Assembly: GCA_020050685.1 (NCBI GenBank)
Contig: JAGVKG010000058.1
Span: 1-64,000, forward strand
Direction of reading: 5' to 3'
Length of the DNA: 64,000 bases
Origin: Candidatus Obscuribacterales bacterium
Lineage (GTDB): Bacteria; Cyanobacteriota; Vampirovibrionia; Obscuribacterales; Obscuribacteraceae
Shown here: positions 26,303 to 48,611 of the stretch, piece by piece
Layout: each line of letters opens with the position of its first letter
How positions within the stretch are numbered: position 1 is the stretch's first letter
Made by a program: the position numbers and the translations under genes
Notes under the pieces: generated by a model
The model's database searches: none
Told to the model about the DNA's origin: nothing
The model's input: only the letters and a program-made list of their open reading frames with translations

Positions 26303-27766
26303 TTAAAAGGACTTGTCTTCCAGTTGATGGACTTGCTCGATAGTAGTTTGCTTGAAAGTTTCACTTGATGAATTTTTCATCTGTGAATCCAACTTGGCTT
26401 TGTCGTCAATTATGCCAGGAGCAGGAATTATCTCACCTGGGCTTGCAGATGGCAACTGCGATCCTGCCGAATCCCCCAAGTTTCCTGAAGAATTGGTCAT
26501 CTTGGGCGCCTCTGTCGGCAATTTGGGCGTAGCAGCATTTGATGGAGCCATACTTTCTGGAACCAGATTTGCTGGAGAAACATTTGCTGGAGCAGCATTG
26601 GCTGGAACAACACTCGTGGAAGCAGGACTTTCTTGAATACTGGGCATACCATCGCTCGGTATGATTGGCGCCGCATCATTGTTCGCGTCACTACTCACGT
26701 CCGGAATCTCTTCCATTGGTCGATTGATAGCAATCTTAAATGGTGCATTCAATCTTATAGTCAAAGGAGATCCGGCAAAGATGAACAAGTCGCCATTTCG
26801 TTTTACCAGCGAGCGGATAACCGAATTAGCATTTTCCTTGTCAGTGCCCTCTTCACCTTCCTGATCAAGTACACCACGGCTATAGGCGCCGGCTCTGGTC
26901 CTGTCTGATCTATGAGACCAGGTGTCTACCGTCTCATCTTCTTCGCCGGTAGCTTCACCTGAGCGGCGATCATTAGGACTACGTTTCTTTTTCTTCTTCC
27001 CAACTTGATTGAGCTCCTCGGCAGTACCTACATATCCTTTGCTCGTGCCAAGCCCAGTGATTTGTGCTTTGCCTGATTTTGTATTGACCAATTCACCAGC
27101 CAGCGAAGCTACCAAAGGAAACGTTGTGCCCTCTGGAGTGCGTATCGAAGTAAGCTGTGTTCTAAGTTTTCCCGTTACAGGCGGTGTATTCTTTGGATGC
27201 GGAATGGTTTTCGAGGGAATAGCTTCAACCACTTCACCAATTATTTCCGTGCCGGCTGGAATCACTACATCTTGTCCATTAGATAATACAGGGCTCGAAA
27301 GCGTAATTTTGAAGATCTCACCTTGCTGGCTCGCACTTGAGCCAATTGTTTTGTCGATCCGTCCTTCAAATGTCGAGCCTTTTGGTATCAAAGCATACTT
27401 GGTTGCTTCTCCCTTAAGGTAAACACCTTGAGCATGGCCAGGCAAAATCTGATTGCTTAATAATGCAATAACACCGCCTGCCACAATGAAGGCAGCTAAG
27501 TGACCTTTATCCGCACTACCATTGCCTTCCGGATTTGCAGTCACGGTATTTGATGAGTCAGTCTGTGCTTTGCCTCTCGACCTCAGCCAAAGTGTAAACA
27601 AAGCCAGTGCCAAGGCAAACGCAAGCACAATGCCAATCCACAGGACAAGCCGACCCACACCAACTAAATATTGCATTGCCCCGGAAACCATGATGCAAGC
27701 AGCAGCAACGACAACCAAGATACTGCCGATACATTTCAATTTTTCAATTAAGTCGTTTGCTTTCAA
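26303..27766 (-). CDS. Membrane protein with a possible VirB10/TrbI-like beta domain
   Basis: 487 residues, not confidently recognised. Three hydrophobic segments (about 13-62 and 89-106) precede a beta-rich domain (about 125-240) with the pattern IPKGSTFEGRIDKT...VVIPAGTEIIGEV...RTPEGTTFPL. The order KGT - IPxGS - G - PdG faintly resembles the VirB10/TrbI C-terminal barrel. A Lys-rich stretch (GKKKKKRS) and a long Pro/Ala/Ser tail with short PANxxPAN repeats follow. The start is a TTG 2 bases after the previous stop, so translation is probably coupled. It lies in the minus operon opposite the T4SS genes. The VirB10 link is a hypothesis. Confidence 0.5.
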   Translation of the reverse strand: MKANDLIEKLKCIGSILVVVAAACIMVSGAMQYLVGVGRLVLWIGIVLAFALALALFTLWLRSRGKAQTDSSNTVTANPEGNGSADKGHLAAFIVAGGVIALLSNQILPGHAQGVYLKGEATKYALIPKGSTFEGRIDKTIGSSASQQGEIFKITLSSPVLSNGQDVVIPAGTEIIGEVVEAIPSKTIPHPKNTPPVTGKLRTQLTSIRTPEGTTFPLVASLAGELVNTKSGKAQITGLGTSKGYVGTAEELNQVGKKKKKRSPNDRRSGEATGEEDETVDTWSHRSDRTRAGAYSRGVLDQEGEEGTDKENANSVIRSLVKRNGDLFIFAGSPLTIRLNAPFKIAINRPMEEIPDVSSDANNDAAPIIPSDGMPSIQESPASTSVVPANAAPANVSPANLVPESMAPSNAATPKLPTEAPKMTNSSGNLGDSAGSQLPSASPGEIIPAPGIIDDKAKLDSQMKNSSSETFKQTTIEQVHQLEDKSF

Positions 27767-27768
27767 GT

Positions 27769-28200
27769 CTAAAACTCACGATTAAGATGCTCTTCGAAAC
27801 GCCCAATCATTACCGGTGCAACGACACGCGCGCCGGCAAAATAGGCCAACGCCAGCACAAGCGGTGGTACCAAGGCGCGCACCAGAGGCGGAAAAAAGGA
27901 ATAGAAGAGATTGATCAAGATGATCGAAACACCCATAGTCATAATGATACAAATTCGGCTGATTAGAGATTCTTGCTGTTCTCGACTCATGCGCTTAAAG
28001 CTATTTGAGAGCGTTTGCAAATAATTGCCCCAGAGGGTCTTAATGCCAGAAGTAGAATCCTTCCAGACTTTCGTATCTTGCACAGAGCGCAAGGCCTGAT
28101 TTAATTCTTGTCCTTGTGATTCCGGACTAGCATCAATCGTGCCCCCGAGATCATCTCGACCGCTCTTTGCGTCTGGTTTGGCCCTTTTGCCGTAGTTCAT
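27769..28200 (-). CDS. Small two-helix membrane protein, unknown
   Basis: 143 residues. The first 80 are hydrophilic (Asp, Ser, Gln, Lys), and two hydrophobic helices follow (about 85-105, CIIMTMGVSIILINLFYSFF, and 107-127). A short charged tail ends the protein. No domain is recognised. It lies between a TPR gene and the possible VirB10-like gene with which it is coupled, so it is probably a component of the same envelope assembly. Confidence 0.65.
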   Translation of the reverse strand: MNYGKRAKPDAKSGRDDLGGTIDASPESQGQELNQALRSVQDTKVWKDSTSGIKTLWGNYLQTLSNSFKRMSREQQESLISRICIIMTMGVSIILINLFYSFFPPLVRALVPPLVLALAYFAGARVVAPVMIGRFEEHLNREF

Positions 28201-28236
28201 AGAATTATCCTCAGGTTAAACTGACCTATATAGATT

Positions 28237-30036
28237 TTACTTCTTCTTATACTTTTCCATGCGCTGTTTCAATTGTTTCAATTTGGCCGTGGTCATTTCT
28301 ACATCCTTGCGCTGGGGATTAGAATCATCGGCTGCCTCCAAAAAACACTGCGCATAGTTCAATGCCTTATCAAAATCTGGTTTCTTAACTTTGCCATACA
28401 AAGAGAAAAGCCCGTAGTAAGCATCGGCAAATTGCGGATCGGCAATCAAGGCTTGCTTATAATGATCAAGCGCAACCTCGGGCATCGTACGTGTTGCATC
28501 ACCGAGCTTAGTTTGTCTGGCGGCTTCATTGCGCTGGCTGATAATTTTATCCAGTCCTTGCTCAGCTCTTGGTGCTACTTCCGAAATCTCCTTGGCATAA
28601 GTATAGGCTTGTTGAGCAGCACTAAGATCGCCGTCATTGAAAGCTTGCTCACCCAAAGTCAATAATTCATAAGGATCATCCTTGTGATTATTAATCACCT
28701 GCGAAAGCAATTGCCTGGCTTCGCGGAATTTATTTTGAGACAAAGCCTTTTCGGCTTCCGTCAACTGAATATTTTCTTGCAGATCCTTGGCACCGGAACC
28801 AGAAGTGATCACCTTACCTTTTACCGTTTGTTCAGAAATTACGTTTTGCAATTGATCCATAATTTGCTGCCAGCCGGGCGGATATTGACCCTCTTTGCGC
28901 GCCTTGCGGAAGTAGACCCGCGACAAACCAAGTAATGCCGAAGCATCATCTGGCTTGGCGGCAAGAATAGTTCTGTATTCGGCTTCCGCTACTTCCAATT
29001 TATCTTGACGCAAAGCAAGCTCAGCCAGCTGCGCCCGCAAAAGCATATCGTTCGGCAAAAGCTCAAGCGAATCGTGCAGCTGCGAAATTGCCAATTCGCC
29101 ATCGCCACGTACAGCATAATATTCAGCCATATGCCGATAAGGCTGAGGGTTGTGCGGTTCAAGCCTTATGGACTCTCTCCAGGAAGCAATTGCTGCCGGT
29201 CCGTCGCCTTGCCGGCGATAAATGTCACCCTCAACTTGAAACCAATCGTAAGTACGATACTGCTGCGGAATATTGTGCAGTTCCATGAAAGCATCTTCCG
29301 GCTTACCGTTATGATTGAGAACTATTGATTTTTGTAAATGGGCCGGCTGATAATTCTTGTTCAGCTCCAGTGCCTTTTCAACGTAGGCTTGGCCTTCTTT
29401 GCTTTTCGGATCAATCCTGAGCAAGCATTGGGCTAACAACGTCAAATTCACTGGGTTTTCACTCAGTTCAGCCGCCTTTCTCAACGGTGCTTCTGCCTGT
29501 TCTGGTTCGTCTTGGGCAAGCTTCACCAGTCCCAGCGTCTGCTGCGCAATCAAAATATCAGGATTTGATTTTATTGCCCGCGTGCACAATGTATCCGCCG
29601 CTTCTAAATAAAGATCGCGCTTGGCCGGCGATGCCACGTTTTTGGAATGCACGTAAGACACATAGCCAGCTGCCGCTAAGACATTGGTATTCTCATCATA
29701 TTTTGATTTGGCTTGACGTAAAATCTTTTCTGCCTCAAGCACTTTGCTTGGCCAGGCTTGCTTAGCCAAGGCAACGGCCAAACCAGCATAAGAATCACCA
29801 TTTGCATCTTGATCAAGAAGCGAGCGATAAGCTTCTTCCGCTTCTTTGTATTTGTTTTCCGTCAGCAAACGATCAGCATCTTCAACCGTTTGTGCCGCAA
29901 CTGCAGCCCAAACCACTGAATTGAAATTACCAACACTGGCAAGACACGATGCCACCACCAAACACGAAAACAACTTCACGCCCGCAAGCGATATCTGTCT
30001 TCCTGTTTGTCGTGCTCTTCTTTTGTTCATATCCAT
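28237..30036 (-). CDS. Exported TPR protein
   Basis: 599 residues. A long N-terminal signal with a Lys/Arg-rich start and hydrophobic core (about 20-45) ends near VVWAAVAAQ. At least ten tetratricopeptide repeats then run to the end, for example LTENKYKEAEEAYRSLL, AVRGDGELAISQLHDSLELL and LGDATRTMPEVALDHYKQAL. No catalytic domain is seen. TPR arrays act as protein-protein scaffolds; the location is probably periplasmic. It starts 3 bases after the stop of the TPR gene before it, so both come from one message. Confidence 0.82.
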   Translation of the reverse strand: MDMNKRRARQTGRQISLAGVKLFSCLVVASCLASVGNFNSVVWAAVAAQTVEDADRLLTENKYKEAEEAYRSLLDQDANGDSYAGLAVALAKQAWPSKVLEAEKILRQAKSKYDENTNVLAAAGYVSYVHSKNVASPAKRDLYLEAADTLCTRAIKSNPDILIAQQTLGLVKLAQDEPEQAEAPLRKAAELSENPVNLTLLAQCLLRIDPKSKEGQAYVEKALELNKNYQPAHLQKSIVLNHNGKPEDAFMELHNIPQQYRTYDWFQVEGDIYRRQGDGPAAIASWRESIRLEPHNPQPYRHMAEYYAVRGDGELAISQLHDSLELLPNDMLLRAQLAELALRQDKLEVAEAEYRTILAAKPDDASALLGLSRVYFRKARKEGQYPPGWQQIMDQLQNVISEQTVKGKVITSGSGAKDLQENIQLTEAEKALSQNKFREARQLLSQVINNHKDDPYELLTLGEQAFNDGDLSAAQQAYTYAKEISEVAPRAEQGLDKIISQRNEAARQTKLGDATRTMPEVALDHYKQALIADPQFADAYYGLFSLYGKVKKPDFDKALNYAQCFLEAADDSNPQRKDVEMTTAKLKQLKQRMEKYKKK

Positions 30037-30039
30037 TGC

Positions 30040-31866: not shown

Positions 31867-32319
31867 TTTATGCGGCTTGAACCTAGTAAGAAAAAGCGCG
31901 AAGACAAATTTACTATGCCCTCGTAGTCTTCATTCTAGCTATGCCCATTTCTTTTTACTCAGTAGTTTCTATCCGATCCTATATATTCCTCTTTATCTAC
32001 ATATAGCTTTTTGCTTACCTGATCTTCCTTCCAAATTTCCGGCAATACCAAACCACCAAATGAGGAAAAGTGTTATCCACAATACATAATTGCGGCTCGC
32101 TCTCATAAAGCTATTGACAAGCGCCGATAAAAGCATTAAAAATTAGTCACTTCAGTGCCCGATGCCAGTCACGGTGCGGCAAATCCATAACTAAGATCTA
32201 TTTCATTCTGATAGACTGGGAATAGGGTACTGGGCGGGTAGCGCTGCTTTTTAAACCGCTTACTAGACGACCAAACCGCGCGCTTTCCGCTCTTAAAGGG
32301 TTCTCCTTTGGAGGGAACG
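31867..32319. other. 453-bp divergent control region of the T4SS-like locus
   Basis: No gene is supported here. The left part, next to the TPR gene, is T-rich and AT-rich. A good plus-strand promoter lies at 32114-32142. A minus-strand frame at 32169-32381 overlaps the leader, lacks a ribosome site and is rejected. Confidence 0.6.
32114..32142 (+). promoter_or_regulatory. Promoter of the T4SS-like operon
   Basis: A consensus TTGACA (32114-32119), a 17-base spacer and TAAAAA (32137-32142, four of six) form a plausible sigma70 promoter. It would give a leader of about 170 bases before the ATG at 32320, where a strong GGAGGG ribosome site stands. Confidence 0.6.
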
Positions 32320-33438: not shown

Positions 33439-33555
33439 ATATACGGTTTAGATATATAAACTTATAGTTTGCTTTATTTACTACAAAACCGGGATTAATA
33501 CAGAAGGATTAATACAAAAGCACCCAACAAGGATTTGGCTAACAGGACAAAGACA

Positions 33556-34188
33556 ATGAAAAACTTAGCATTATTATCAGTAGCGTTTACCTTGGCTTTC
33601 TTTTCGCCATTGCAGGTGCAAGCGCAAAAGGTCAATACCAAGAAAATCGACAAAGTCGATTGGTTCCATGGCCGCCGTCAGTTTCAAATTATTGACGAGC
33701 GACCGGAAGTGCACGACTTTCGTGAAGCGCCATCTGCGCCACAATCAATGGATTTACCTCCTGGACCGCAAGGTTTCGATGGCTCAGGTGGTTATAACGG
33801 CCCCGGCTCAACAGGCGAAGGCGGACCCGGTGGTGGCACCGCACCAATTCAACTGGGCGGACCGAATCCCGGTTATCGCAATGCACCGTCTGCGTTACAA
33901 TCCTTGCCCAAATCCGGTTTCGGCAGAGAGAGCAATATTCCTGCCCGGGGATTAGGACCAAAAGGTCCATTGCCCGGTGTGACCACAGGTGTCTTAGGCA
34001 AATTAATGACTCCGACTAAGGGTCAAGGCATGAATGCTGGCGCACCGAGAGGCATGTCCGGTAATCGCGCGCGTGCAGCAGCACCAGCACAAAGTTACTC
34101 TGGCGGTTATGGACAAGGCTCCGGCGCAAGTTCTGGTGGTGGACGTACCGAGGGAATAGTTCGGGGCACACTCTTAAGAAGCAAGTAA
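33556..34188 (+). CDS. Secreted Gly/Pro-rich protein, unknown
   Basis: 210 residues from the ATG at 33556; AGGA lies 11 bases upstream, and a TTG at 33535 is possible. It has a clear signal peptide (LALLSVAFTLAFFSPLQVQA, cleavage after AQA). The N-terminal 50 mature residues are charged (KIDKVDWFHGRRQFQIIDER). The rest is Gly, Pro, Ser and Ala-rich and probably disordered. No family is recognised. It stands second in the T4SS-like operon, between the GYYKA protein and the lipoprotein, and is likely an exported partner of them. Confidence 0.72.
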   Translation: MKNLALLSVAFTLAFFSPLQVQAQKVNTKKIDKVDWFHGRRQFQIIDERPEVHDFREAPSAPQSMDLPPGPQGFDGSGGYNGPGSTGEGGPGGGTAPIQLGGPNPGYRNAPSALQSLPKSGFGRESNIPARGLGPKGPLPGVTTGVLGKLMTPTKGQGMNAGAPRGMSGNRARAAAPAQSYSGGYGQGSGASSGGGRTEGIVRGTLLRSK

Positions 34189-34196
34189 CAGGTAAC

Positions 34197-36092
34197 ATGC
34201 GAAAAACGTCCTTTGCCATTCTGACAACAATCACATTATCTGGTTGCGCCCAGCAAAGCATGACCAACGATTCCAATGTGCCGTCGGCCGATGGTTCAGG
34301 AAGTTCAATGTCGGTTTTGGGAAGTTTGCGTCCCAAAACCGATCCGGCGCTTGTAGAAAAGATCAAACAAGAACAACAAATGGCACAAGTTGCCCTGGTA
34401 AAGCAGCAGCAGCAAGCAGAGAGCACCAAGTCGCCGGAACAAGTAGCACGCGATCTTCCCCAAGTTTCCATGGCTCCGATTGCACCACCGGCAGATCAAA
34501 TCGCTCAAACAGCTCAAGCACCGGGTGGCATTGTCACCGGCATGCCTATGGCGATGCCAACTTCATCATCATCGCCATTTCCGTTTTGGCCATTTGCGCA
34601 GAACAATCAATCAAGACCACCGGCCAGCTATGGTGGTTATGGCTCAGTGCCACCACCGCCACCAGAGGCAGTCGGAGGAGGCGGCGGCTCCGGTTTAGTG
34701 CCGCCACCACCCGCGGTATCACTCTCCACGCAAGCTCAAACCATGCCTTATGGCACGATGCAAGATCCATACGCTAACCCGTATGCCAACCCTTACGCCA
34801 ATCCTTATGGCAATCCTTATCAGCAGCAAGCCCCGCAGCAAGTAGCAGCAGTGCCGCCCCAAAAGAGTCCTGGCAGTTTGTTTGGTTCAGGAAGTCGAGC
34901 ACGTTCGGGCGACGACAACAATGCAGGAGAAGAGCGTCCACGCAAGTCGCAAGACTTCGTGCCAATTACGCCAACCGGCATGGAAGCACGCTCTGCTTAT
35001 AAGCAGCGTGACGATTTAAAAGTATTGCTCAAAGGAGCTCTCGCCGTTTCACCATTGCAAGGTTTGGCCAACCAGGATGAAAGAATTGCCCAGTCCTTAG
35101 CTGGTCTGGATGTGGCTCTACCGCAAGAGTCTTCTAAAGGCAGTTTCAACATTTCTCAAAGACAACTCGAAATTCTTTTTCATTCTGCTAATGTCGACAA
35201 ACGCATTGCTCCTCAAGTAAAGAAATTGCAAGCAGACATTGCTCAAGTCTATTACCGTTATTTGTTCTCATACAACAAGTTTGCTTTGGCGCACCAAACA
35301 CTGGCAGCTCGCAAACAGCAAGCAGAAGTTGCCGACAGCCAAGCCGAACAACAAAGAGCAGCTGCCGATATTGCTCAAGCCCAAGACAATTCCGAACAAG
35401 CAAAAGAAGAAATCAAATCAGCCCAAGTGGAATTAGCATCAGTAGCAGGAGCGCAAGCAGCCAAAGCAATCATCACTCGTATTTCCGGTGCCGCACCACA
35501 AATGGATGCTTTGAACGCTGCAGAAAATAACACAGTCGCCCAGCAACAATCAGCTGGTGGACATTCATCCGGTTTTTTGGGTTCCATTCTTGGCTTCAGC
35601 AAATCGCACGATTCACAAGACACGAGCGCCCAAGTAGCCAGTGCAAAACCAGAGAAAAAGAAGAAGGAAAACAAGGCAAAGAAAGAAGAAAGCAAACCTC
35701 CAGCGCAAGACTTGGCAATGGCACCGGAGAGCAAACCAGTTGAACTGGCTGCCAAGCCGGCCGCATCAATTGCGCCACCACGCCCTCGCTCAGGGAGCGA
35801 ATCAATTTCCTTCATTTTGAAAGATGTGTCGGTAACGGCACGCAAATCGATATTGAAAGTTGCGGTACGCAATCAAGGTGCCTCAAGTTTTTCATTTAAC
35901 CCAGATTCAATTTCAATTTCGGAAGGCAATCACAGATTATCGGAGGCAAGCTTGCGCGCGGACTTTGAGACCAATTGCATTCAACCGAATCAAGAGGTAG
36001 TTGGCACCATTACTATCTATGGTCATCCCTGGAATGAAAGACTATCCGTACTTTTGCCTAGTGGTGACCGCAACATTCAATTAAGACGTTAG
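34197..36092 (+). CDS. Large lipoprotein with NPYA repeats and coiled coil
   Basis: 631 residues. The short signal ILTTITLSGC ends in a good lipobox (L-S-G-C), so the product is lipid-anchored. A long low-complexity part (Pro, Gln, Gly) contains PYANPYANPYANPYGNPY at about 191-208. A helical region (about 255-430, Ala/Gln/Glu-rich, likely coiled coil) and a Lys-rich linker follow. A C-terminal beta domain (about 530-631, starting SISFILKDVSVTARKSILKV) ends the protein. Position and lipid anchor are compatible with a VirB7-like or outer-membrane role, but no sequence family was recognised. AGG lies 7 bases before the ATG. Confidence 0.75.
   Translation: MRKTSFAILTTITLSGCAQQSMTNDSNVPSADGSGSSMSVLGSLRPKTDPALVEKIKQEQQMAQVALVKQQQQAESTKSPEQVARDLPQVSMAPIAPPADQIAQTAQAPGGIVTGMPMAMPTSSSSPFPFWPFAQNNQSRPPASYGGYGSVPPPPPEAVGGGGGSGLVPPPPAVSLSTQAQTMPYGTMQDPYANPYANPYANPYGNPYQQQAPQQVAAVPPQKSPGSLFGSGSRARSGDDNNAGEERPRKSQDFVPITPTGMEARSAYKQRDDLKVLLKGALAVSPLQGLANQDERIAQSLAGLDVALPQESSKGSFNISQRQLEILFHSANVDKRIAPQVKKLQADIAQVYYRYLFSYNKFALAHQTLAARKQQAEVADSQAEQQRAAADIAQAQDNSEQAKEEIKSAQVELASVAGAQAAKAIITRISGAAPQMDALNAAENNTVAQQQSAGGHSSGFLGSILGFSKSHDSQDTSAQVASAKPEKKKKENKAKKEESKPPAQDLAMAPESKPVELAAKPAASIAPPRPRSGSESISFILKDVSVTARKSILKVAVRNQGASSFSFNPDSISISEGNHRLSEASLRADFETNCIQPNQEVVGTITIYGHPWNERLSVLLPSGDRNIQLRR
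34767..34820 (+). repeat. Short tandem repeat encoding NPYA units
   Basis: Four and a half 12-base units coding for Asn-Pro-Tyr-(Ala/Gly), with third-position variation between copies. It lies within the lipoprotein gene. Confidence 0.8.
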
Positions 36093-36133
36093 TCAGGCGT
36101 TAGTCAGACGCTAGCCAAGCCAAGGAAATTTCG

Positions 36134-38779
36134 ATGAAACCCAACCACCCCTTACTAGACTTAAGAGCACAAACGCTGCAAATTGCACGTTGGGTTTCCG
36201 CACGTCTGATTATGATCATCGCCTTGGCTATGGCAACTTTGTTTTTACCATCGCAGGCCCAGGCTCAGTCACAAGACTCACCGCTTGGTTCTGGTGGTGA
36301 ATCATCCGGTATTGTGCAAGACTCAAACGAACGCCATCTTTGGGATATCCGTAAGGATTACTACTTACGTTTTCCCTTTGCAAAATTAGCCGGACCATTC
36401 CACCCGAAGGAGAACCCCCAAGGAAACGACATTCTTGTAGTTGCCGGAATTCAGCAGCAAGAGAAGGGTGCAAAGGTTGAAATTAAGAAATCAGAAGGTC
36501 CTGGTTTTGGCAAAGTGCTGGCTTATGATATCTGCCACGTACATTGTGATGGTGTGGGACATTGGCTGCCTGGAGCCGAAATTTATCACCAACCACAAAT
36601 CCCTTGTCCGTTGCCGGCTTGCTACTTTCAGCCAAAGCTTTGGGCATTCGATGTGCCTGCCACCAAACGCGACAACGAATTATTCCTTACAGCACTCGGA
36701 ACTTATGGCGGCAAACCACAAGTCAATTTGGCCGGCGTAAATGGCTTGCCATTATCTGATACACAGTTTCAGATTATCGATCGGGAAAACAATCAACGCT
36801 TCTTAGAGCTCCTCTATGACCCTGAGCGTTTTGTCTGGATGTCCACATCGGTTGGTCAAATTCAAGGAACCGCTCTGGCTAATTCAGAAGCCGGTGCTGC
36901 TGAAAAATCTTTCAACAATGCATATGATCGCGTGCGCAATGAAAACCTGATCAACATGGCCAATGAAACTGCGCTTGTGCCAACTTCTGCCCAGAACCCC
37001 AAGAAGACCATTCCACAGGCCTGCTGGATGGTGATGAAGATGTATAAGGAATTATACCTGCCGATGGCACTGCTCTTCTTGCTTCCTGGTGCCGTGCTCA
37101 CGCAAGTCCAGAGCTTTGTGCACAAAGGCATGCTTGCCGGAGAAGGCAAGATGAATATGCCATTTGAAGGCATACTGCGTGCCATGATTGCTATATTTTT
37201 GATTCCTGCTACACAAATGATTGTCAGCTATTCCATTGACATTGGCAACACTATGGCGAATTCAGTTGCGCAATGGATAGTGCAAGAAACTATTTTTGAT
37301 TGGGCACATGAGCAAAGCTACAATTGCCCGCAATCAAATATCATCAACTACATTCCGCCACCGGAAACAGTTCGAACTGAATGGGGCGTGACGCAAGAAA
37401 AGCCGTCACCGGGAAGCGGTGAACTGGGTAAAGGCTTAGAAGCATCCGAAGACGATGCTGTACAAGAAAAGCAACTCTTCCTCTCGCAAGTTGTGCAGCT
37501 TGCCTTCAATGCTGCGATTCATGGATTTAGTTATGCCGTGATCGTTCTTACCGGCTTCCAACTTGTCTACATGTGCTATCTCTTTTTACTTGGGCCATTA
37601 TCCGCTTGTTTCTTTGCCTGGCCTGCGCTGGAAGGTGGCGCGCATTTATTCCGAGACGTGTTCAGCAAGTGGCTCAATGCTGTAATTACAATTTCGCTTT
37701 GGCGATTTTATTGGTGCGTGATTTTAGCAATCATGACCGTACGTCTGCAATGGCTTGCAGACATGGGAATGAAGCATACAACATTGACTTTCGAAATGAT
37801 GGTCTTTACCTGTTTTCTTGGCCTGATGCTCTATGTGCCATTTGCACCATTTCAGTTTGATCCCGGTGGTGCAGTTACTGCTGTTTTGCAGCAGGGCGCG
37901 TCAATGGGCAGTGGCATGAGCCAAGGAATGACCCAGGCCGGCAAAGACATGGGAATACCGGAGTCGACAATGAAAACCGTTACCGGACCAATGGACCAAG
38001 CAGTGGCCCAGGTTGGTCAAGTTGGCAGTGCCATGGTACACGACACACAATTACAGATGGCCCAAAAAGGCTTAATGCCTATGGATGCAGCCAGTGGTGG
38101 TCATGGTGCTGGTGCTGGACAAGGCGCTGGCGGTCACGGTGGCGGTCATGGTGGCGGCGGAAGTTCTGGTGGCGGCGGAGGCGGAACAGCCGTTTCAGAC
38201 TCGCAAGTTAGCACCACAGGTGGTGGCGGATCTTCGGCCGGCGGACCACCTCCTATGACTGCCAATCAACAAATGGCTATATTGTCGCAGCCAATGACGC
38301 CGCAAACACAAACGCTTCTTGGTGGCATGGCTCAAATGGGTGTGCAAAACATGAGCATGCCTCCAGCTGCTGGACAATCACCAATGCCACTTACGCCTCA
38401 AGCACCAATAGCATCCGGCATGAGCGGCGGCGGCAACCAATCAACATTCATTCCGACCAATGCTGCTATGCCGATGAGTCAAATTGCTCAAGCGATTCCA
38501 GCCATGATGCAGAATCCGCAACTACAACAAGCAATGAGCATTGCACCGCTTGGCACATTATCGCAAGTTGTTTCTGCCAGCCTGAACGTCAGTTCTTCTG
38601 CCCCACAAACCGGCGCGCCAAGTCCAGGTCCATCGCAGGCATCTAGTTCGCCACAACCACCGACGCCATCGCAACCGCAGCAAGCACCACCACCTGCACC
38701 CGGTCCCGGAAATATTCCCCCGCCACCACCTCCTCCTCCGCCGCCACCACCGCCTTCCGGACCATCAAAATCAGCTTAA
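36134..38779 (+). CDS. VirB6/TrbL-like polytopic membrane protein A
   Basis: 881 residues. A signal-like helix (about 20-45) is followed by a soluble domain (about 60-290) with YYLRFPFAKLAGPF and SDTQFQIIDRENNQRFLELL. Membrane helices at about 315-335, 345-375, 460-500, 510-535 and 545-580 form the VirB6/TrbL-like core (LLFLLPGAVLTQVQSF, AMIAIFLIPATQMIVSYSID). The last about 300 residues are Gly-, Gln-, Met- and Pro-rich, ending in a run of prolines. AAGGAA precedes the ATG. It is paralogous to the next gene through the soluble and membrane parts. VirB6 proteins form the inner-membrane channel base of T4SS; the assignment rests on topology and on VirB3/VirB4 neighbours. Confidence 0.68.
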   Translation: MKPNHPLLDLRAQTLQIARWVSARLIMIIALAMATLFLPSQAQAQSQDSPLGSGGESSGIVQDSNERHLWDIRKDYYLRFPFAKLAGPFHPKENPQGNDILVVAGIQQQEKGAKVEIKKSEGPGFGKVLAYDICHVHCDGVGHWLPGAEIYHQPQIPCPLPACYFQPKLWAFDVPATKRDNELFLTALGTYGGKPQVNLAGVNGLPLSDTQFQIIDRENNQRFLELLYDPERFVWMSTSVGQIQGTALANSEAGAAEKSFNNAYDRVRNENLINMANETALVPTSAQNPKKTIPQACWMVMKMYKELYLPMALLFLLPGAVLTQVQSFVHKGMLAGEGKMNMPFEGILRAMIAIFLIPATQMIVSYSIDIGNTMANSVAQWIVQETIFDWAHEQSYNCPQSNIINYIPPPETVRTEWGVTQEKPSPGSGELGKGLEASEDDAVQEKQLFLSQVVQLAFNAAIHGFSYAVIVLTGFQLVYMCYLFLLGPLSACFFAWPALEGGAHLFRDVFSKWLNAVITISLWRFYWCVILAIMTVRLQWLADMGMKHTTLTFEMMVFTCFLGLMLYVPFAPFQFDPGGAVTAVLQQGASMGSGMSQGMTQAGKDMGIPESTMKTVTGPMDQAVAQVGQVGSAMVHDTQLQMAQKGLMPMDAASGGHGAGAGQGAGGHGGGHGGGGSSGGGGGGTAVSDSQVSTTGGGGSSAGGPPPMTANQQMAILSQPMTPQTQTLLGGMAQMGVQNMSMPPAAGQSPMPLTPQAPIASGMSGGGNQSTFIPTNAAMPMSQIAQAIPAMMQNPQLQQAMSIAPLGTLSQVVSASLNVSSSAPQTGAPSPGPSQASSSPQPPTPSQPQQAPPPAPGPGNIPPPPPPPPPPPPPSGPSKSA

Positions 38780-38818
38780 CTACCTTTGCCATCATCGTCC
38801 CTCATGAGGTCTAATAAA

Positions 38819-41800
38819 ATGTTCGCCACACCACAGATCACCAAATTCACCGTAAAAATGCTGCTTGCATTGATGTTGGTTGCGGCGCTACCTCAACTTA
38901 CTTTCGCCCAAAAAGGCGGTGGACCAGCTATGCCGGCAGGCGGCGCACCAGGAGCCTCTTCCTCATCCAAAGGTGGTAGCTCGGGAAGCACCACAGGCGG
39001 TGACAACGCAGCCCACGACGACTCCAATCCATCAACTCCTTCAAAAATTCGCGATAACTATTTCTTGCGTTTTCCCGTAGCTAAAGAACATGGTCCTTAT
39101 GCACCGGACAAGGGTTGGACAGGCCATGACATATTGATTGAAGTTGCCGGTGAGGGCAACGACAAGGGCAAGAAGATGAAGAAGAAAAAATCAGACGGCC
39201 CTGGCACGATTATTCACTGCAAATCCGGTCCAGTGCAGGTGTGGCCTCTTTTGGTGCCCTGCGCAGTATCTAATGTACCAACAAAGCGCGACGAAGGCAT
39301 CATGGATGACCTCTTCCAAACCTTCGGTTATCCGGTGTCGGACACTCAATTCCAGGTTATCCAACGTTACAACCAGAACCGTTTACTAGAACAACTCTAC
39401 GATCCGGAAAAATTAGACTGGCTCAGCACTTCGATCGGTGCTGTACAAGCCACCACCGCCGCAAACTCCGCAGCCAACTTGGAGCGCAACCAATCAGCCG
39501 GTGCAATTGAGTACGCCCAACAATATCTCTACAATTTTACTTCTGATGGTGGCAATCGCTGGAATAATATCCGCGACAAGCTGTTTGTACCAATTGCCAT
39601 CTTGCTCTTGTTACCAGGAGCAGTTGCAGCACAAGTAAAAGTAATCATCCAACAAGGTTCTCCTGTTTTGGGAGAGGCAGTCAATCCATTTGAAGGCATC
39701 ATTCGTTCCATAATTGCCGTCTTTATGATTCCTGCCACCTGGTTTGTGCTCAACTATGGCATAGACATTTCCAATTCAATTGCCTTGTCAATTAACGACA
39801 AGTACAAACAAGCATTTCACGGCGACATGTATAAGGATGCGCAATGTGCCCATGCTCGTGCGTTCCAAATCCGCGACCCCAATTCCAATGAAAACGCTAT
39901 TACTCCTCCTGATTATGCAGGTGGTGGTGGTGGCAACGACCCGAAGTCTTGGAGCGACGTAGAAAAACATAGTTTCGACATCACGACAGAAGATCCTTGT
40001 AAACAATGGGGATCGCAAGGTGGTGGCGGAAACCAAGACAGAAAAGACGAGCACGAAACCATGCTTAACTCTGCACAGCGCGCGGCAATCAACGCAGCCA
40101 ATGCTGCGCTTTGCGGAGCCTGGGCAGTTATGTGCGCCTTCCAAACTTGCTACCTATTATATCTGTTCTGCATGGGACCAATTGTGGCAGCCTTATGGGT
40201 CTGGCCAATTGACTCGTTCCGCAAAGCACTGGGCTCTTGGATCGAAGGTGTTGTAACCATTTGCTTTTGGAGTCTATTTTGGAATACAACCATTTTGCTC
40301 ATGGCTTGCTTCAAAGGCGTAGCTGACACGGGAACCGTGATCATGACTGCTTTGAATTATCTCGCTAACATTTGTGTGGTCTATGCCTTTAAGTTTGCCG
40401 ATCTCGCCGGATCTGCCGGACAGCAAGCTGCTGGTGCAGCAAAAGGTGCTGCCAGCAGTGGAGCAGGCAGAGCCGGAGCTGGTGCCATGGCCGGACACGC
40501 TGGTGCTGGTGCCGGTGCCGGAAGAGGCGGTGGCGGACACGGAACCGCAACAGCCGGTGGTGGTCATCCTGCAGGAGCTGCCGCCGGTGGCGGCGCAGGC
40601 GCTACAGCTGGTCAAGCAGCAGCCATGGCAGTGCATGGAGCCGTCATGGGAGGCGGTGGTGGCATGTCAGCCGGACAAGTACTTGGTGGCACAGGTGGTG
40701 CCACATCAGCAGACCACGTACCTGGAGGTTCAGGTGGTGGCACAGGAATGGGAACCGGTGGTTCATCCGCAGGCCCACTTGGCGCTGGCGGACTTGGTGG
40801 TGGTCTTAGCGGATCACAGCCTGGCGGTGGAGGCACCACAGGTGGTGGCACAACAGACAGCAGCGCTTCCGCAGCAATGGGCGGCGGAGGTGCCGGCGGC
40901 TCTCTTGCCGGAGGCATGTCCAATCTCGCATCAAACGTTCCTGGTGGCGCTCACGGTGGCGTCGGTGGTGGTCATGCCACGCAGGGCGGAGGCGGCATAG
41001 GTAGCGCCGTCGGTGGTGCCTTGGGTGGCGGTGGTGCCGGAGCACCCGGAGCGCCAGGAGCTGGCATCGGTGGTGCTGGCGGAGCTGGTGGCATCGGTGG
41101 TTCCGGTGCAACAGGCGCAACTGGAGCAACCGGACAATTATCTGGATCTTTATCGAGTGACGCCAAGGGACTAGGTTCAATACCTGGCGACATCAGCGGT
41201 GCAAAAACCTCATTGGGTGATACCAATGTTTCAGGTGGACCGCCAGGAGCTATCAGCGCCGGAGCACCCGGTGCACCAGGCGGTCTTGCCGATGCCTCTT
41301 CCGGAGCGCGCCCGAACATACCTGGTGTTACAGATTTGAATGCACCACTCGGTCAAGGAACAGCACAAGGACTGCCTACAGGACAAATTCCTGGTCAACA
41401 AAATCTTGGAGTGACAGGCGCTGAAACAGCATTTATTGCTGGAGCCGTGGGAGGGTTATTTGCGGCTTCACAAATTCCTGGTGGAGTACCACAGCCTGCA
41501 CCAGAACAAGTGGCTTCAGCGCCACCACCTCCTCCGCCACCGGCTCAACAAGCACCGGCACCACCAGTGGAGGCCGCGCCGATAGTACAACAGCCTGTAC
41601 CGCAGCAACAGACAGTCCAGTCTGCACCACAAACTGTTGTAAATGAAACACAGATTGCCCAAAGTTCACCACAAGTGCAATACACGCAATCACAAGCACC
41701 AGCTCCTCCTCCAGTGGAAGTGAGGTACGATACTGCATACAATGCACCGGCGCCGACTTATCCGTCGGCACCACCGCCTCCTCCACCGCAAGCACCTCCG

Positions 41801-42211
41801 CCTCCGGCTCCGGCACCAGATTATCAATATGGTGCAAATTATCAGGCGGCACCACCGGCTCCACAACAACCGGCCCCGCCGCAACCTCAGGCTCCGCCGC
41901 AGGTCGCCAGTGCTCCGCTTGTTGAGCAGCAACAAGGCCCGCCAATTACTCCAGCTCAAGCAGCAGCTGCTGCTGCCGGAACTGTATTTGTTGCCAAAGC
42001 AGCACCAGAGCAAGTGCCTGCCCCGAGTCCATCGCAGCCAGCACAAGAGCAAGCACAAGAAGTTGCCTATAGTGGTCCAGCGAGATCAATAGACGCATTT
42101 AGCGCAATGCGGGCTAGCGCCCAGAAAAAGGGCAACAAGCTCACGGCTCAGGAGAAAAAAGAACTGGAAGAAGCCGAAGCATACGCGCGATCACAAGGTT
42201 GGATATCATAG
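38819..42211 (+). CDS. VirB6/TrbL-like polytopic membrane protein B with Gly-rich and Pro-rich tails
   Basis: About 1130 residues from the ATG at 38819, with GAGG 10 bases upstream; an in-frame ATG at 38804 is possible. The signal peptide ends at LTFAQ. The soluble domain (YFLRFPVAKEHGPY, SDTQFQVIQRYNQNRLLEQL) and membrane helices (ILLLLPGAVAAQVKVI, SIIAVFMIPATWFVLNYGID) mirror protein A. A Gly/Ala-rich region of about 300 residues follows, partly with collagen-like G-x-y triplets. A Pro/Gln/Ala-rich region comes next, then a small helical C-terminus (IDAFSAMRASAQKKGNKLTA). The C-terminal tail may reach across the periplasm. Same functional call and caveats as protein A. Confidence 0.68.
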   Translation: MFATPQITKFTVKMLLALMLVAALPQLTFAQKGGGPAMPAGGAPGASSSSKGGSSGSTTGGDNAAHDDSNPSTPSKIRDNYFLRFPVAKEHGPYAPDKGWTGHDILIEVAGEGNDKGKKMKKKKSDGPGTIIHCKSGPVQVWPLLVPCAVSNVPTKRDEGIMDDLFQTFGYPVSDTQFQVIQRYNQNRLLEQLYDPEKLDWLSTSIGAVQATTAANSAANLERNQSAGAIEYAQQYLYNFTSDGGNRWNNIRDKLFVPIAILLLLPGAVAAQVKVIIQQGSPVLGEAVNPFEGIIRSIIAVFMIPATWFVLNYGIDISNSIALSINDKYKQAFHGDMYKDAQCAHARAFQIRDPNSNENAITPPDYAGGGGGNDPKSWSDVEKHSFDITTEDPCKQWGSQGGGGNQDRKDEHETMLNSAQRAAINAANAALCGAWAVMCAFQTCYLLYLFCMGPIVAALWVWPIDSFRKALGSWIEGVVTICFWSLFWNTTILLMACFKGVADTGTVIMTALNYLANICVVYAFKFADLAGSAGQQAAGAAKGAASSGAGRAGAGAMAGHAGAGAGAGRGGGGHGTATAGGGHPAGAAAGGGAGATAGQAAAMAVHGAVMGGGGGMSAGQVLGGTGGATSADHVPGGSGGGTGMGTGGSSAGPLGAGGLGGGLSGSQPGGGGTTGGGTTDSSASAAMGGGGAGGSLAGGMSNLASNVPGGAHGGVGGGHATQGGGGIGSAVGGALGGGGAGAPGAPGAGIGGAGGAGGIGGSGATGATGATGQLSGSLSSDAKGLGSIPGDISGAKTSLGDTNVSGGPPGAISAGAPGAPGGLADASSGARPNIPGVTDLNAPLGQGTAQGLPTGQIPGQQNLGVTGAETAFIAGAVGGLFAASQIPGGVPQPAPEQVASAPPPPPPPAQQAPAPPVEAAPIVQQPVPQQQTVQSAPQTVVNETQIAQSSPQVQYTQSQAPAPPPVEVRYDTAYNAPAPTYPSAPPPPPPQAPPPPAPAPDYQYGANYQAAPPAPQQPAPPQPQAPPQVASAPLVEQQQGPPITPAQAAAAAAGTVFVAKAAPEQVPAPSPSQPAQEQAQEVAYSGPARSIDAFSAMRASAQKKGNKLTAQEKKELEEAEAYARSQGWIS

Positions 42212-42260
42212 CTAGACTGACATTAAGTTGGAGAGGCTTGAGCCTCTGATCGGAGAGTAA

Positions 42261-42908
42261 ATGCACGTAGCAGACATAGGAGTAAAATGCCCTGTTTGTG
42301 GCGTCAAATTTAGTTCGAAGCAGTTGCCGGTAATTGTTGACACCAATCGCCGCAACTCAGAACTCCGTCAAGACTTCGAAGGAAAGATTCCTCAATTCGA
42401 GCAATATGCAGTATGCACTTGTCCTTCCTGTGGTTATGCCGACTGGGCGCATCGATATGAAGTGACCAACGAAACTTCCGTCTTGACCGCGCGCAAATTG
42501 ACACCACACATTCAATTTCGCTCGGCTGCGATTGCTGCCGAAAAAGAAGGACGCGACTTTTATTCCATCGGCATCTTTTACCTTTATGCTGCCTGGTGCG
42601 CAGACGACAGTTATGCGGTTCAACAAGCAAAAGAATATCGGAAACTGGCAGTGGATTTCTTGAAGAAGTCTCTCGTCGACGGCTCTTGCCCAAAAAACCA
42701 GAAGGAAGAAATCCAATATCTGGTCGGTGAGATCATGCGCCGCGCCGGTGACTTTGAACAATCCAAAGACCACTTCCGTCAGGTCATGCCGCGTCTTTCA
42801 TCCAAATTCGCCCTCATGGCGCGAAAGTTAATGAAACTTGCCGAATCTCAGGATTCTAATCCCATAGAATTTGAATGGGGAGAGAAAACAAGCGAGGTCC
42901 AAAAGTAG
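42261..42908 (+). CDS. DUF2225 zinc-ribbon protein
   Basis: 215 residues with two Cys pairs near the start, CPVC (about 10-13) and CPSC (about 54-57), typical of the DUF2225 zinc-binding fold. A helical, TPR-like C-terminal half follows (DFYSIGIFYLYAAWCADD, AGDFEQSKDHFRQVM). It has no signal peptide, so it is cytoplasmic. GGAGAG lies 4 bases before the ATG. Its stop is immediately followed by the VirB3-like start (TAG ATG), tying it to the secretion genes. DUF2225 function is not established. Confidence 0.8.
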   Translation: MHVADIGVKCPVCGVKFSSKQLPVIVDTNRRNSELRQDFEGKIPQFEQYAVCTCPSCGYADWAHRYEVTNETSVLTARKLTPHIQFRSAAIAAEKEGRDFYSIGIFYLYAAWCADDSYAVQQAKEYRKLAVDFLKKSLVDGSCPKNQKEEIQYLVGEIMRRAGDFEQSKDHFRQVMPRLSSKFALMARKLMKLAESQDSNPIEFEWGEKTSEVQK

Positions 42909-43280
42909 ATGTCACAGATTCATCGTGTGATTATCTTGAATAAGCCACTAAAAATCCGCGGGAAGACTCCTTTCCAGTGGGTACTTTTGGTTGGTTCGGC
43001 CGCGCTTGGATTTTTCATCGCCTCCAAAGTTCCGAAGGAATGGCAATTTAATCACATCCCAGCTGGATTTTTTGTCTTCGGCACAGTATTTGGCTTGGCC
43101 CTAATTTTTGTCACCGCCTCGGAAATGAAACCGCTTCAGTGGTGGAGAAATGTCATTCTCTATGGGTGCAAACTAATGCCCTTGATGTTCTTTCCTCATT
43201 CAGAGCCCGCCAGGGAATATATAGATGAGAATATGATTGAAAGTAAGAAGGAAAAAGTGTTGGTTGAATTTGAGCAATAA
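42909..43280 (+). CDS. VirB3/TrbD-like small membrane protein
   Basis: 123 residues. An N-terminal segment, VIILNKPLKIRGKTPFQW, is followed by two membrane helices (about 24-42 and 50-70) and a cytoplasmic tail. This matches the size and topology of VirB3, which in T4SS operons sits directly before virB4 and works with it at the inner membrane. Here too the VirB4 gene follows after 11 bases. Sequence similarity is short, so the call leans on context. Confidence 0.65.
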   Translation: MSQIHRVIILNKPLKIRGKTPFQWVLLVGSAALGFFIASKVPKEWQFNHIPAGFFVFGTVFGLALIFVTASEMKPLQWWRNVILYGCKLMPLMFFPHSEPAREYIDENMIESKKEKVLVEFEQ

Positions 43281-43291
43281 GGAGGATTTGG

Positions 43292-45964
43292 ATGACCGAC
43301 ACAATGAAACCATCAAACCAGACAGATGCTTATCCAAATTCCCCTAAGCAAGGAAATGGACAGGCAAGCAAGCCAAATCCGCTTGCTAGTTTTTTGCCGT
43401 CACCAATTCGGGAAATGATTTTGGGACCGCAAGACGATCTTTCCGGTCCGCCGCCAGACAAACGGGTGGACACAAGCTGGCAAGATATTTGTTTCCTGCA
43501 TGCAATTCCTGGCGATGACAACGACGAAGGTCTAGTCATATTAGCTGATGGTTCTATGCGCAAATACATTGGCTGCAAGGGCGTAAACGCATTGCTGTTC
43601 GATGAAGCTGAGCGCGAACAACTGGCTCGTCACTTTGCCCAACTAGCAAATTCAGCAGAAACCGATTTACAAGTCATCGTCAAGTCTCGCCACTTATCTG
43701 TCGATGAGTACCTTGAGCATTATCAGTCTGTGATTAAGACGGACAATGAATATCTCAAATGGTATGCAGAATGTACCGATCGTTGGTTTCGTCAAGTACA
43801 AGATTTGTCCTATATTCCCCAGCGTGATTTTTACGTTGTCGTAAGTTACCAACCGCCTGACTCAAAGAGTTTGACAAAACCTTGGTCCGGCAGACGATCA
43901 ATTCAAAAGCACGAGGAGTTTCTTGACATTCTCGATCGTTACGTAAGAACGTCGATCGAGCAATTGCGTCAGTCCAATTTGCGCCCTCAAGTTCTTTCGC
44001 GTCGCGAAGTCAGAAATTTGATCTATGAAGATCTCAACCCAACCTTATCGCATGCAGAGCCAGAAGCACCACCATCACGATTGGATGTGTCTGAATCATC
44101 GGCACTTGCTTGTTCTGCACTAAAAGTCACCAATGAACATTTATGGTTGGACGGCAAATATGTCGCAACACAGTATTTATCTCAGCCTCCGCATGAATCG
44201 TGGATGGGGTGGCTTGTCGATCTTTTGACTTTGAATATGGAATATACAATGTCCATATTCATTCACAATTGCGATCAAGATTCTGTGCGCAAGAAATTGC
44301 AGATGAATTATCGCATGGGCGTTGTGTCCAGTACGCAATTGGCCACTCCAGACCTTGAAGGAATTGAATCCACTCGTTCTGCCGCTTCTGCAATCCAAGA
44401 ATTTTTGCGCTCATCGAACAAAGCATTTGATCTCAGCTTATACATCACGACTTATGCAGAAACGCAAGAGAAGCTGGCAAATTATGCTGATGAAATCCGC
44501 CGAGTCTTCAAGAACAAGGGTGCAATTTTAGATCGCGGGCAAATGCTGCAATTAGATTGCTGGCAATCAACGCTTCCAGTTGGTGTCGACAAATTAGCAA
44601 TTGTCCATCAGGTTATGTCACCGATTGTCGGAACGTTTTGGCCATTCTTCACTGCCCAATGTGGAACACCGGATGGTGTGCCATTTGGATTTGCCCTTGC
44701 ATCGCGCGAGCCTGTCTTGCTCAATCCTTTTTATAGAGGCGCGGGAAAAGAAGCTAACAACATGTTTGTTGTAGGCACCACCGGTGCTGGTAAATCATTT
44801 GCCGTGTCGATGATGATTCTGCGCTTGCTGCCCCTTGGTGTACGCTTTGTGCTTATAGATAAGACAGTGGATAAATTTGGAGCCTATCGATTCATCACTG
44901 AAATTCTTGGACCAGAGCTTTGTAATTACATTGACCTTGGACCGAGCTCGGGTTACATTCTCAATCCGTTTGATCTCGGACCAGAAGACAAACCAGGCGA
45001 ACCATCGGCGGACAAAATAAGCAACTTGCTTTCGCTTCTGGACATTATGTTGGCACCAGAAGGCCGAGATGAATTGAGCGTTGAGGAAAAGTCACTTCTC
45101 GACGGATTGATTCGGGTTGCCTACATGGAAGCTGGCTTCCAGGGATCTGTGCCAACAATGTCTGATCTGGCGCGCGTTACTGCTCAAGCAGCTCAGTCGG
45201 AAACGGATCCTGTTCAGCGTGAACGCCTAGGTGCATTTGCCCGCGGTCTTTCACTTTTCACAAGACAAGGCGCGTTCGGTGGACTGGTTGATGGTCTGAC
45301 AAATATTGATACCGAAAAACTATTCATGGTATTTGATACACGTGAAGTCAACGAGCCGCGTTTAGAAAGAATCGCAGTCTTTATCCTCACAGAATTCATT
45401 CGCTGTAAAGCTGCCGAATGCAAAGCTCGTTCAATTCGATTTGCTGCTATCATCGACGAAGCGGCAACACTCATGCGCTTCAGAGCAGGCGCACGACTGC
45501 TCGACGACCTATCAAGACGCGCTCGCCACTACGGTATGATGTTGGTGGCAATTACTCAGCAATTGAAAGACTTCTTCAAGCAAGCCGAGCAAGCCGATTC
45601 CGTTATAAAAAACTCACACATGAAGATCCTTCTCCGACAAGATCCAAGCGACTTGCGATTGCTCAAAGATACACTTCGTCTTACCGATGCAGAAGTTGCC
45701 GCGGTTGAAAACTTTGGTCACTCCGAAGAAAAGCGCAGGCAAAGTCAATGTCTTTTCATTGTTGGTGGCATTCACGGCACCATCGCGCTGCCACCAAGTC
45801 CAATGGATTATTGGATTTGTACATCAGAACCAATTCGCGATATTCCTTTGCGCTTAAATACAATTCGCGAGATCATGGAAAAGAATCCCGGTTGCACCTA
45901 CACGCAAGCCTGCCGGCAAGCAGTCTACCTCCTCGGCCAACAATGGGAACGCGGCTTGCTGTAG
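43292..45964 (+). CDS. virB4: VirB4/TraC-type T4SS ATPase
   Basis: 890 residues. A Pro/Asn-rich start is followed by the CagE/TrbE/VirB N-terminal domain (about 65-440). The P-loop ATPase domain carries Walker A VVGTTGAGKSF (about 493-503) and Walker B FAAIIDEAATL (about 716-726). The downstream RRARHYGMMLVAITQQLKDF and LLRQDPSDLRLL are characteristic of VirB4. GGAGG at 8 bases precedes the ATG. VirB4 energises T4SS assembly and substrate passage at the inner membrane. It is the last gene of the plus operon and the firmest evidence that the locus is T4SS-related. Confidence 0.92.
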   Translation: MTDTMKPSNQTDAYPNSPKQGNGQASKPNPLASFLPSPIREMILGPQDDLSGPPPDKRVDTSWQDICFLHAIPGDDNDEGLVILADGSMRKYIGCKGVNALLFDEAEREQLARHFAQLANSAETDLQVIVKSRHLSVDEYLEHYQSVIKTDNEYLKWYAECTDRWFRQVQDLSYIPQRDFYVVVSYQPPDSKSLTKPWSGRRSIQKHEEFLDILDRYVRTSIEQLRQSNLRPQVLSRREVRNLIYEDLNPTLSHAEPEAPPSRLDVSESSALACSALKVTNEHLWLDGKYVATQYLSQPPHESWMGWLVDLLTLNMEYTMSIFIHNCDQDSVRKKLQMNYRMGVVSSTQLATPDLEGIESTRSAASAIQEFLRSSNKAFDLSLYITTYAETQEKLANYADEIRRVFKNKGAILDRGQMLQLDCWQSTLPVGVDKLAIVHQVMSPIVGTFWPFFTAQCGTPDGVPFGFALASREPVLLNPFYRGAGKEANNMFVVGTTGAGKSFAVSMMILRLLPLGVRFVLIDKTVDKFGAYRFITEILGPELCNYIDLGPSSGYILNPFDLGPEDKPGEPSADKISNLLSLLDIMLAPEGRDELSVEEKSLLDGLIRVAYMEAGFQGSVPTMSDLARVTAQAAQSETDPVQRERLGAFARGLSLFTRQGAFGGLVDGLTNIDTEKLFMVFDTREVNEPRLERIAVFILTEFIRCKAAECKARSIRFAAIIDEAATLMRFRAGARLLDDLSRRARHYGMMLVAITQQLKDFFKQAEQADSVIKNSHMKILLRQDPSDLRLLKDTLRLTDAEVAAVENFGHSEEKRRQSQCLFIVGGIHGTIALPPSPMDYWICTSEPIRDIPLRLNTIREIMEKNPGCTYTQACRQAVYLLGQQWERGLL

Positions 45965-48610: not shown

Positions 48611-48611
48611 C

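What the first reader, a model, noticed from the sequence alone, without database searches (positions are those of the whole stretch)
26303..45964. Reduced, non-mobile T4SS-like export locus with its own set of exported scaffolds
Seen: a plus operon with VirB4 ATPase, a VirB3-like protein, two VirB6/TrbL-like membrane proteins, a lipoprotein and two signal-peptide repeat proteins. A divergent minus operon encodes two exported TPR proteins, a small membrane protein and a protein with a faint VirB10-like domain. Missing: relaxase, VirD4 coupling protein, VirB11, integrase and att sites. T4SS genes are known in Vampirovibrio. This combination could be a dedicated protein or surface-fibre exporter in free-living relatives. 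The link between the two operons is inference from divergence.
Basis: partly seen in the sequence, partly recalled or inferred. Interest (0 to 1): 0.85.

Follow-up and report, generated by a model that had tools for sequence, protein, structure and literature searches.

The report
Order-wide chromosomal type IV secretion locus
This stretch encodes most of a type IV secretion machine (the kind bacteria use to pass DNA or proteins to other cells) that has become a fixed, inherited part of the chromosome across a whole order of non-photosynthetic cyanobacteria, without the genes that would make it a mobile plasmid system.

Summary
The locus is real: a reduced, non-mobile T4SS-type locus conserved throughout Obscuribacterales. 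VirB4 is well supported and about 74% identical across the order. The small protein before it resembles PrgI/VirB3. TrbI/VirB10-like similarity is weak but occurs in 11 of 11 homologues. The two large membrane proteins are paralogues with a VirB6-like motif and gene position, but no profile or fold test proves them VirB6. Relatives keep one gene order across both divergent operons, so their link is no longer only inference. Relatives also carry two small genes after VirB4, one with a VirB8-type predicted fold; in this genome that pair lies on another contig. A second, paralogous locus in the same genomes has VirB4 and VirD4. Nearly every genome has just these two VirB4 genes. Relaxases occur in 40 of 53 genomes, usually beside their own coupling protein and, where inspected, never beside a VirB4, so mobile elements may borrow a resident machine. 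The B6 pair also occurs as stand-alone, multiplied cassettes. A specialised transfer channel is the best reading; whether it moves DNA or protein is untested. No published description was found in the open papers searched. New variant of a known kind.

The parts
26303..27766 (-). VirB10-like (TrbI-domain) protein, 487 aa; extra N-terminal hydrophobic segments that homologues lack
   Evidence: TrbI PF03743 6e-4 here, 11/11 homologues match, best 2.5e-5; conserved position
27769..28200 (-). small conserved membrane protein (143 aa)
   Evidence: no family; conserved in 12 relatives' loci, median 37% identity
28237..30036 (-). exported TPR protein 2 (599 aa)
   Evidence: TPR families to 3e-19; conserved, median 63% identity
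30040..31866 (-). exported TPR protein 1 (608 aa)
   Evidence: TPR families to 2e-28; conserved, median 46% identity
32308..33438 (+). exported low-complexity protein sec1 with four GYYKA repeats
   Evidence: signal peptide by eye, four GYYKA; conserved position
33535..34188 (+). exported low-complexity protein sec2
   Evidence: signal peptide by eye; conserved position
34197..36092 (+). large lipoprotein: lipobox LSGC, Pro-rich linker, probable coiled coil, C-terminal domain (weak DUF4352)
   Evidence: conserved position
36134..38779 (+). B6a, polytopic membrane protein with Gly/Pro-rich tail; VirB6-like candidate
   Evidence: motif GP-x7-WP...W; paralogue of B6b; VirB6 profile test not significant
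38786..42211 (+). B6b, polytopic membrane protein with ~600 aa Gly/Ala/Pro tail; VirB6-like candidate
   Evidence: only weak NCBIfam hits: ICE transmembrane protein 0.005 and conjugative-transposon TraJ 0.025; tail composition
42261..42908 (+). DUF2225 zinc-ribbon protein, conserved neighbour of VirB4 in both loci
   Evidence: PF09986 4e-15; also at the second locus
42909..43280 (+). VirB3/PrgI-like two-helix membrane protein
   Evidence: hhalign with PrgI family 73%, E 3e-5; control membrane family 5%
43292..45964 (+). VirB4/TraC-type ATPase (type 1)
   Evidence: PDB profile match to VirB4-like structure 4ag5, 2e-15; ~74% identity order-wide
46006..46101 (.). dispersed palindromic repeat after virB4, where relatives have the two small VirB8-slot genes
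   Evidence: inverted arms; 16 near-copies in the genome against 0 for the reversed-pattern control

Best explanation
A vertically inherited, chromosomally fixed type IV secretion machine, one of two paralogous ones in Obscuribacterales genomes. SHOWN: VirB4 ATPase; order-wide conservation; conserved two-operon gene order; absence of relaxase and coupling protein from the locus. SUPPORTED: PrgI/VirB3-like partner; VirB8-fold partner (encoded elsewhere in this genome); TrbI/VirB10-like periplasmic domain. INFERRED: VirB4 with VirB3, the B6 pair and VirB8 forms the inner-membrane motor and channel; the VirB10-like protein, lipoprotein, TPR proteins and exported low-complexity proteins carry the path across periplasm and outer membrane to the surface. 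Having no coupling protein, it must receive substrates from one encoded elsewhere, or take them from the periplasm. MOST LIKELY USE (inference): a resident cell-to-cell transfer channel that relaxase-plus-coupling-protein elements without a VirB4 use in trans to move DNA; the host's own benefit (DNA exchange or protein delivery) remains open.
For: VirB4 identity. Type-1 VirB4 in 51 of 53 sampled genomes of the order, the two without it being under 75% complete; full-length orthologues 71-77% identical to the window's. Gene order RimM-UbiX-VirB10like-smTM-TPR2-TPR1 <-> sec1-sec2-lipo-B6a-B6b-DUF2225-B3-VirB4-B8b-B8a is kept across genera and two families where the contig covers it, except some genomes lacking the B6 pair or DUF2225 there. 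VirB4 is more conserved (74%) than neighbours UbiX (66%) and RimM (40%). The B8a model (pLDDT 84) has mostly VirB8-family structures among its best PDB matches, E ~1e-4. B3-PrgI profile match with control. TrbI in 11/11. Two VirB4 per genome in most of 53 while 40 have relaxases; 15 of 17 inspected C60-type relaxase loci have a coupling protein at or near the relaxase and none a VirB4.
Against: No experiment. VirB6 identity is unproven; the B6a model is poor (pLDDT 58). VirB8-like matches are mixed with plastid ARC6/PARC6 domains of similar fold. Family f2 keeps the locus with no relaxase detected, so mobile elements cannot be its only reason to persist. Locus 2, with its own VirD4, could be the machine that serves the mobile elements. 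No VirB9 and no recognised outer-membrane pore.
Confidence: 0.55

Rival explanations
1. A dedicated protein exporter, for effector delivery or building surface fibres, specialised from a conjugation machine; the exported low-complexity proteins, lipoprotein or B6 tails are its products or surface structures.
For: No relaxase or coupling protein in the locus; conserved low-complexity secreted proteins in the operon; family f2 has the locus without detected relaxases; B6 cassettes with very variable tails multiplied in some genomes.
Against: No effector-like gene in the locus; the secreted proteins carry ordinary Sec-type signals and would not need a T4SS; relaxase elements lacking VirB4 need some mating channel.
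Confidence: 0.3
2. A DNA uptake or exchange machine of the host itself, like the domesticated archaeal Ced/Ted systems, unrelated to mobile elements.
For: Same situation: chromosomal, relaxase-free, VirB4 plus channel-like proteins, lineage-wide (PMC9905601).
Against: No DNA-processing gene (HerA, NurA, Rad50 type) in the locus; a different envelope and gene set.
Confidence: 0.1
3. A decaying remnant of an integrated conjugative element.
For: No relaxase, VirD4 or VirB11 in the locus; the VirB8-like pair is split off in this genome.
Against: Intact ORFs, 74% VirB4 identity across two families, fixed synteny and flanks.
Confidence: 0.02

Closest known systems
Patescibacteria (CPR) chromosomal T4SS, MPF_FATA-like (PMC12102498)
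   Same: Lineage-wide, chromosomal, VirB4 + PrgI/VirB3 + VirB6 with relaxase mostly absent; proposed to be co-opted.
   Different: Different phylum and envelope; there VirB4 is homologous to the monoderm (MPF_FATA) machinery and VirB8/VirB10 are scarce, whereas here VirB4 lies outside the sampled FATA clade, a VirB8-fold and a TrbI-domain protein are present, and two machines occur per genome.
Rickettsiales rvh T4SS (PMC10732058)
   Same: Duplicated VirB4 and VirB8, several VirB6 copies with large extra regions, scattered gene clusters.
   Different: rvh is P-type with VirB9, VirB10, VirB11 and VirD4; here VirB9 is absent and VirB6 identity is unproven. That rvh is order-wide and relaxase-free is my own knowledge, not from the passages read.
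CD1110-type conjugative plasmids of Firmicutes (MPF_FATA, e.g. Enterococcus raffinosus pHG52)
   Same: Best VirB4 profile; gene order membrane protein - PrgI - VirB4 matches.
   Different: VirB4 only ~22% identical and below the CD1110 curated cutoff (181.6 vs 325 bits); no VirD4, lysozyme or relaxase in the locus.
Archaeal Ced/Ted DNA-transfer systems (PMC9905601)
   Same: Domesticated, chromosomal, no relaxase, VirB4 and VirB6-like proteins.
   Different: No sequence link tested beyond a weak ATPase profile match (CedB 3e-7); function here unknown.
Vampirovibrio chlorellavorus T4SS (PMC4451040)
   Same: Same class of bacteria; a T4SS.
   Different: MPF_T type, partly on conjugative plasmids with relaxases.

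Membership tests
Type IV secretion superfamily | VirB4-type ATPase | tested here: met
Type IV secretion superfamily | VirB3/PrgI partner | tested here: met
   hhalign 73%, E 3e-5, control 5%; moderate strength
Type IV secretion superfamily | VirB6/TrbL polytopic channel protein | tested here: inconclusive
   position and motif only; profile tests not significant; poor model, its TrwI/VirB6 match E 0.17
Type IV secretion superfamily | VirB8 | tested here: met
   predicted fold of B8a from relatives, homologue on C20 in this genome; fold-level only
Type IV secretion superfamily | VirB10 | tested here: inconclusive
   TrbI in 11/11; 6e-4 and below cutoff for the window protein, best 2.5e-5
Type IV secretion superfamily | VirB9 (CagX) | tested here: not met
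   PF03524 absent from 52 of 53 genomes; many MPF classes of monoderms also lack it
Self-transmissible conjugative system | relaxase and coupling protein in the same module | tested here: not met
   absent from the locus; elsewhere in the genome
CD1110 / MPF_FATA class | VirB4 above curated cutoff and inside the FATA clade | tested here: not met
   181.6 vs 325 bits; the FATA rows form their own clade, 100/100
VirB11-containing systems | VirB11 ATPase | not tested
   none in the locus; genome-wide search not run, since PF00437 also matches type IV pilus ATPases
Functional secretion system | substrate transfer | not testable with these tools
   needs experiment

The most novel reading that the evidence does not exclude
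A whole bacterial order keeps a resident, chromosomal conjugation channel as shared infrastructure: mobile elements carry only relaxase and coupling protein and plug into it, while proliferating, interchangeable B6 cassettes with variable tails give it different surface or partner specificities.
Probability: 0.25. Interest if true: 0.85.

Novelty: new variant of a known kind. Interest (0 to 1): 0.6.

Why it matters
T4SSs are usually owned by mobile elements. A vertically inherited pair fixed across an order of free-living, non-photosynthetic cyanobacteria would be a new case of domestication beside Patescibacteria, Rickettsiales and archaeal Ced/Ted. It makes a question testable: do mobilisable elements in such a lineage depend on a host-owned channel? 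It also bears on what Obscuribacterales, recovered from groundwater, soil and wastewater metagenomes, do to neighbouring cells.

Tried and rejected
VirB6 identity by Pfam/NCBIfam, PDB profile, AlphaFold/Foldseek and hhalign: not significant. B6a fold search: meaningless top matches from a low-confidence model. The B8a profile against PDB gave spurious polyubiquitin hits, discarded in favour of the fold. B8b is not detectably related to B8a. Idea that relaxase elements carry their own B6 genes: rejected for the loci inspected. Idea that the palindromic repeat marks the breakpoint that moved the VirB8-like pair: not shown, since no copy lies at the C20 side. PF03524 in G030 goes with two extra MPF_T-like systems, not with this locus. 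The 690-733 aa 'third' VirB4-like ATPases of a few genomes were placed in the tree but not pursued.
Full report
Observation. VirB4 is a clear TraC/VirB4-class ATPase: NCBIfam CD1110 2e-53, TraC-F 5e-50, VirB4_CagE 2e-40, Pfam P-loop_TraG 9e-17, and a profile match to the solved VirB4-like structure 4ag5 at 2e-15. All curated NCBIfam cutoffs are missed, so no named VirB4 subfamily is claimed.

Distribution. Searching 194 genomes of the class found type-1 VirB4 in 51 of 53 genomes of the order (two families), some as partial matches; full-length orthologues are 71-77% identical to the window's. The two genomes without it are under 75% complete. A scan of genome contigs (84,980 species genomes) gave 51 loci, whose record titles are mostly Obscuribacterales, Melainabacteria or Cyanobacteria; a few carry other or generic names that I read as mislabelled bins. 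The patterns used are specific, so this does not exclude distant relatives. In 339 genomes sampled across the phylum only the own genome and three weak matches appeared. The best plasmid VirB4s are only 22-24% identical.

Synteny. Profiles built from window proteins, run on relatives, show one gene order: RimM-UbiX-VirB10like-smTM-TPR2-TPR1 <-> sec1-sec2-lipo-B6a-B6b-DUF2225-B3-VirB4-B8b-B8a. It holds across genera and in family f2 (L038/L111). Many contigs cover only part of it. Exceptions: L079/L112 and L074 lack the B6 pair at this place, and several loci lack DUF2225. The divergent operons therefore belong together by conserved position, which is strong but still circumstantial evidence of joint function. 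VirB4 (median 74%) is better conserved than neighbours UbiX (66%) and RimM (40%).

Missing pair. In relatives two small genes follow VirB4 wherever the contig reaches, apart from a few divergent VirB4 copies (L046/L087, L047/L088). In this genome both lie on contig C20, followed by riboflavin genes, as in relative L036 (riboflavin synthase read from its sequence). This is a rearrangement or an assembly join; it cannot be decided here. The longer one (B8a) was modelled from 26 relatives (pLDDT 84); Foldseek's best PDB matches are mostly VirB8-family proteins (TraM, DotI, TrwG, CagV, VirB8, TraE), E about 1e-4 to 1e-3, with plastid ARC6/PARC6 domains among them.

Other components. The VirB3-like protein aligns with PrgI (hhalign 73%, E 3e-5; an unrelated membrane family from the same operon gave 5%). 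TrbI matched all 11 VirB10-like homologues, the best at 2.5e-5. B6a and B6b are paralogues; they share a GP-x7-WP...W element resembling the VirB6 loop motif listed in PMC10732058, with spacing that differs from it, and they sit where the VirB6-like protein sits in PrgI-VirB4 plasmids. Profile comparison with those plasmid proteins was not significant, so VirB6 identity is inconclusive.

Rest of the genome. A second VirB4 (27-32% identical) lies on C28 with DUF2225, a VirB3-sized and a VirB8-sized protein, a large membrane protein and a VirD4 (PF02534 5e-15); that VirD4 occurs in 47 of 53 order genomes. With TIGR00929, 52 of 53 genomes match and most have exactly two VirB4s, the two types; G030 has two further, MPF_T-like ones, and a few genomes have an extra type-1 copy or fragment. 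Types 1 and 2 are separate, well-supported clades; long branches make deeper relationships unsure.

Relaxases. PF03432 matches 40 of 53 genomes, none in family f2. In this genome the relaxase on C60 carries a motif-III-like H-x-D-x4-NPHVH stretch (read by eye) and is followed by a strong coupling protein (PF02534 1e-42). Of 17 loci inspected with C60-type relaxases, 15 have a coupling protein at or near the relaxase and none has a VirB4 by the profiles used. One exception is a contig end, one a short fragment. These profiles could miss a very divergent VirB4, but the genome-wide search agrees. So the only VirB4s recognised in most of these genomes are the two chromosomal ones. That is the basis of the resident-channel hypothesis; it does not say which locus is used, and VirD4-free locus 1 is only the more natural partner.

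B6 cassettes. Profile A13 finds many extra B6 genes in some genomes (up to 25 matches in G051, 21 in G089, 20 in G095; matches can be fragments). The 12 regions inspected away from the core locus show B6a-B6b pairs or clusters without VirB4, B3 or B8 genes. G001, which lacks the pair at the core locus, has a cluster on C9. The own genome has only the core pair by this listing.

Literature. Open-access searches found no description of this system; the founding genome paper of Obscuribacter contains neither 'secretion' nor 'conjug' in its main text. Subscription papers and supplements were not searched. Nearest precedents: Patescibacteria, archaeal Ced/Ted, Rickettsiales rvh.

Verdict. Identity as a conserved T4SS-derived machine: high confidence (about 0.9). 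Use as a resident transfer channel: inference, moderate. Novel within a known kind.

Noticed in passing
G000:C28:25026-31426 (L034, L035): Second, paralogous T4SS-type locus with its own VirB4 and VirD4; a Replic_Relax protein (PF13814 2e-14) lies nearby in this genome.
   Followed up: partly
G000:C60:2262-7295 (L118): Relaxase beside a dedicated coupling protein, with no VirB4 found on the contig; the same pairing recurs across the order.
   Followed up: partly
L160-L172: Stand-alone B6a/B6b cassettes, sometimes several in tandem, without any VirB4 nearby; tails very variable in length.
   Followed up: partly
window 46006-46101: Palindromic dispersed repeat after virB4, 16 near-copies in the genome.
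   Followed up: partly
window 26303-27766: The VirB10-like protein has ~115 extra N-terminal residues with hydrophobic segments that homologues lack; most homologues end in a C-terminal phenylalanine, as outer-membrane proteins often do.
   Followed up: no
L048:9342-11543 (G093:C3), G105:C65, G123:C177: A third group of shorter (690-733 aa) VirB4-like ATPases, without Pfam match in the one tested (L048), in a few genomes.
   Followed up: partly
window 46130-51068: Two adjacent large membrane proteins after the locus; the 48612-51068 one has a weak PMT_2 glycosyltransferase match (8e-6).
   Followed up: no
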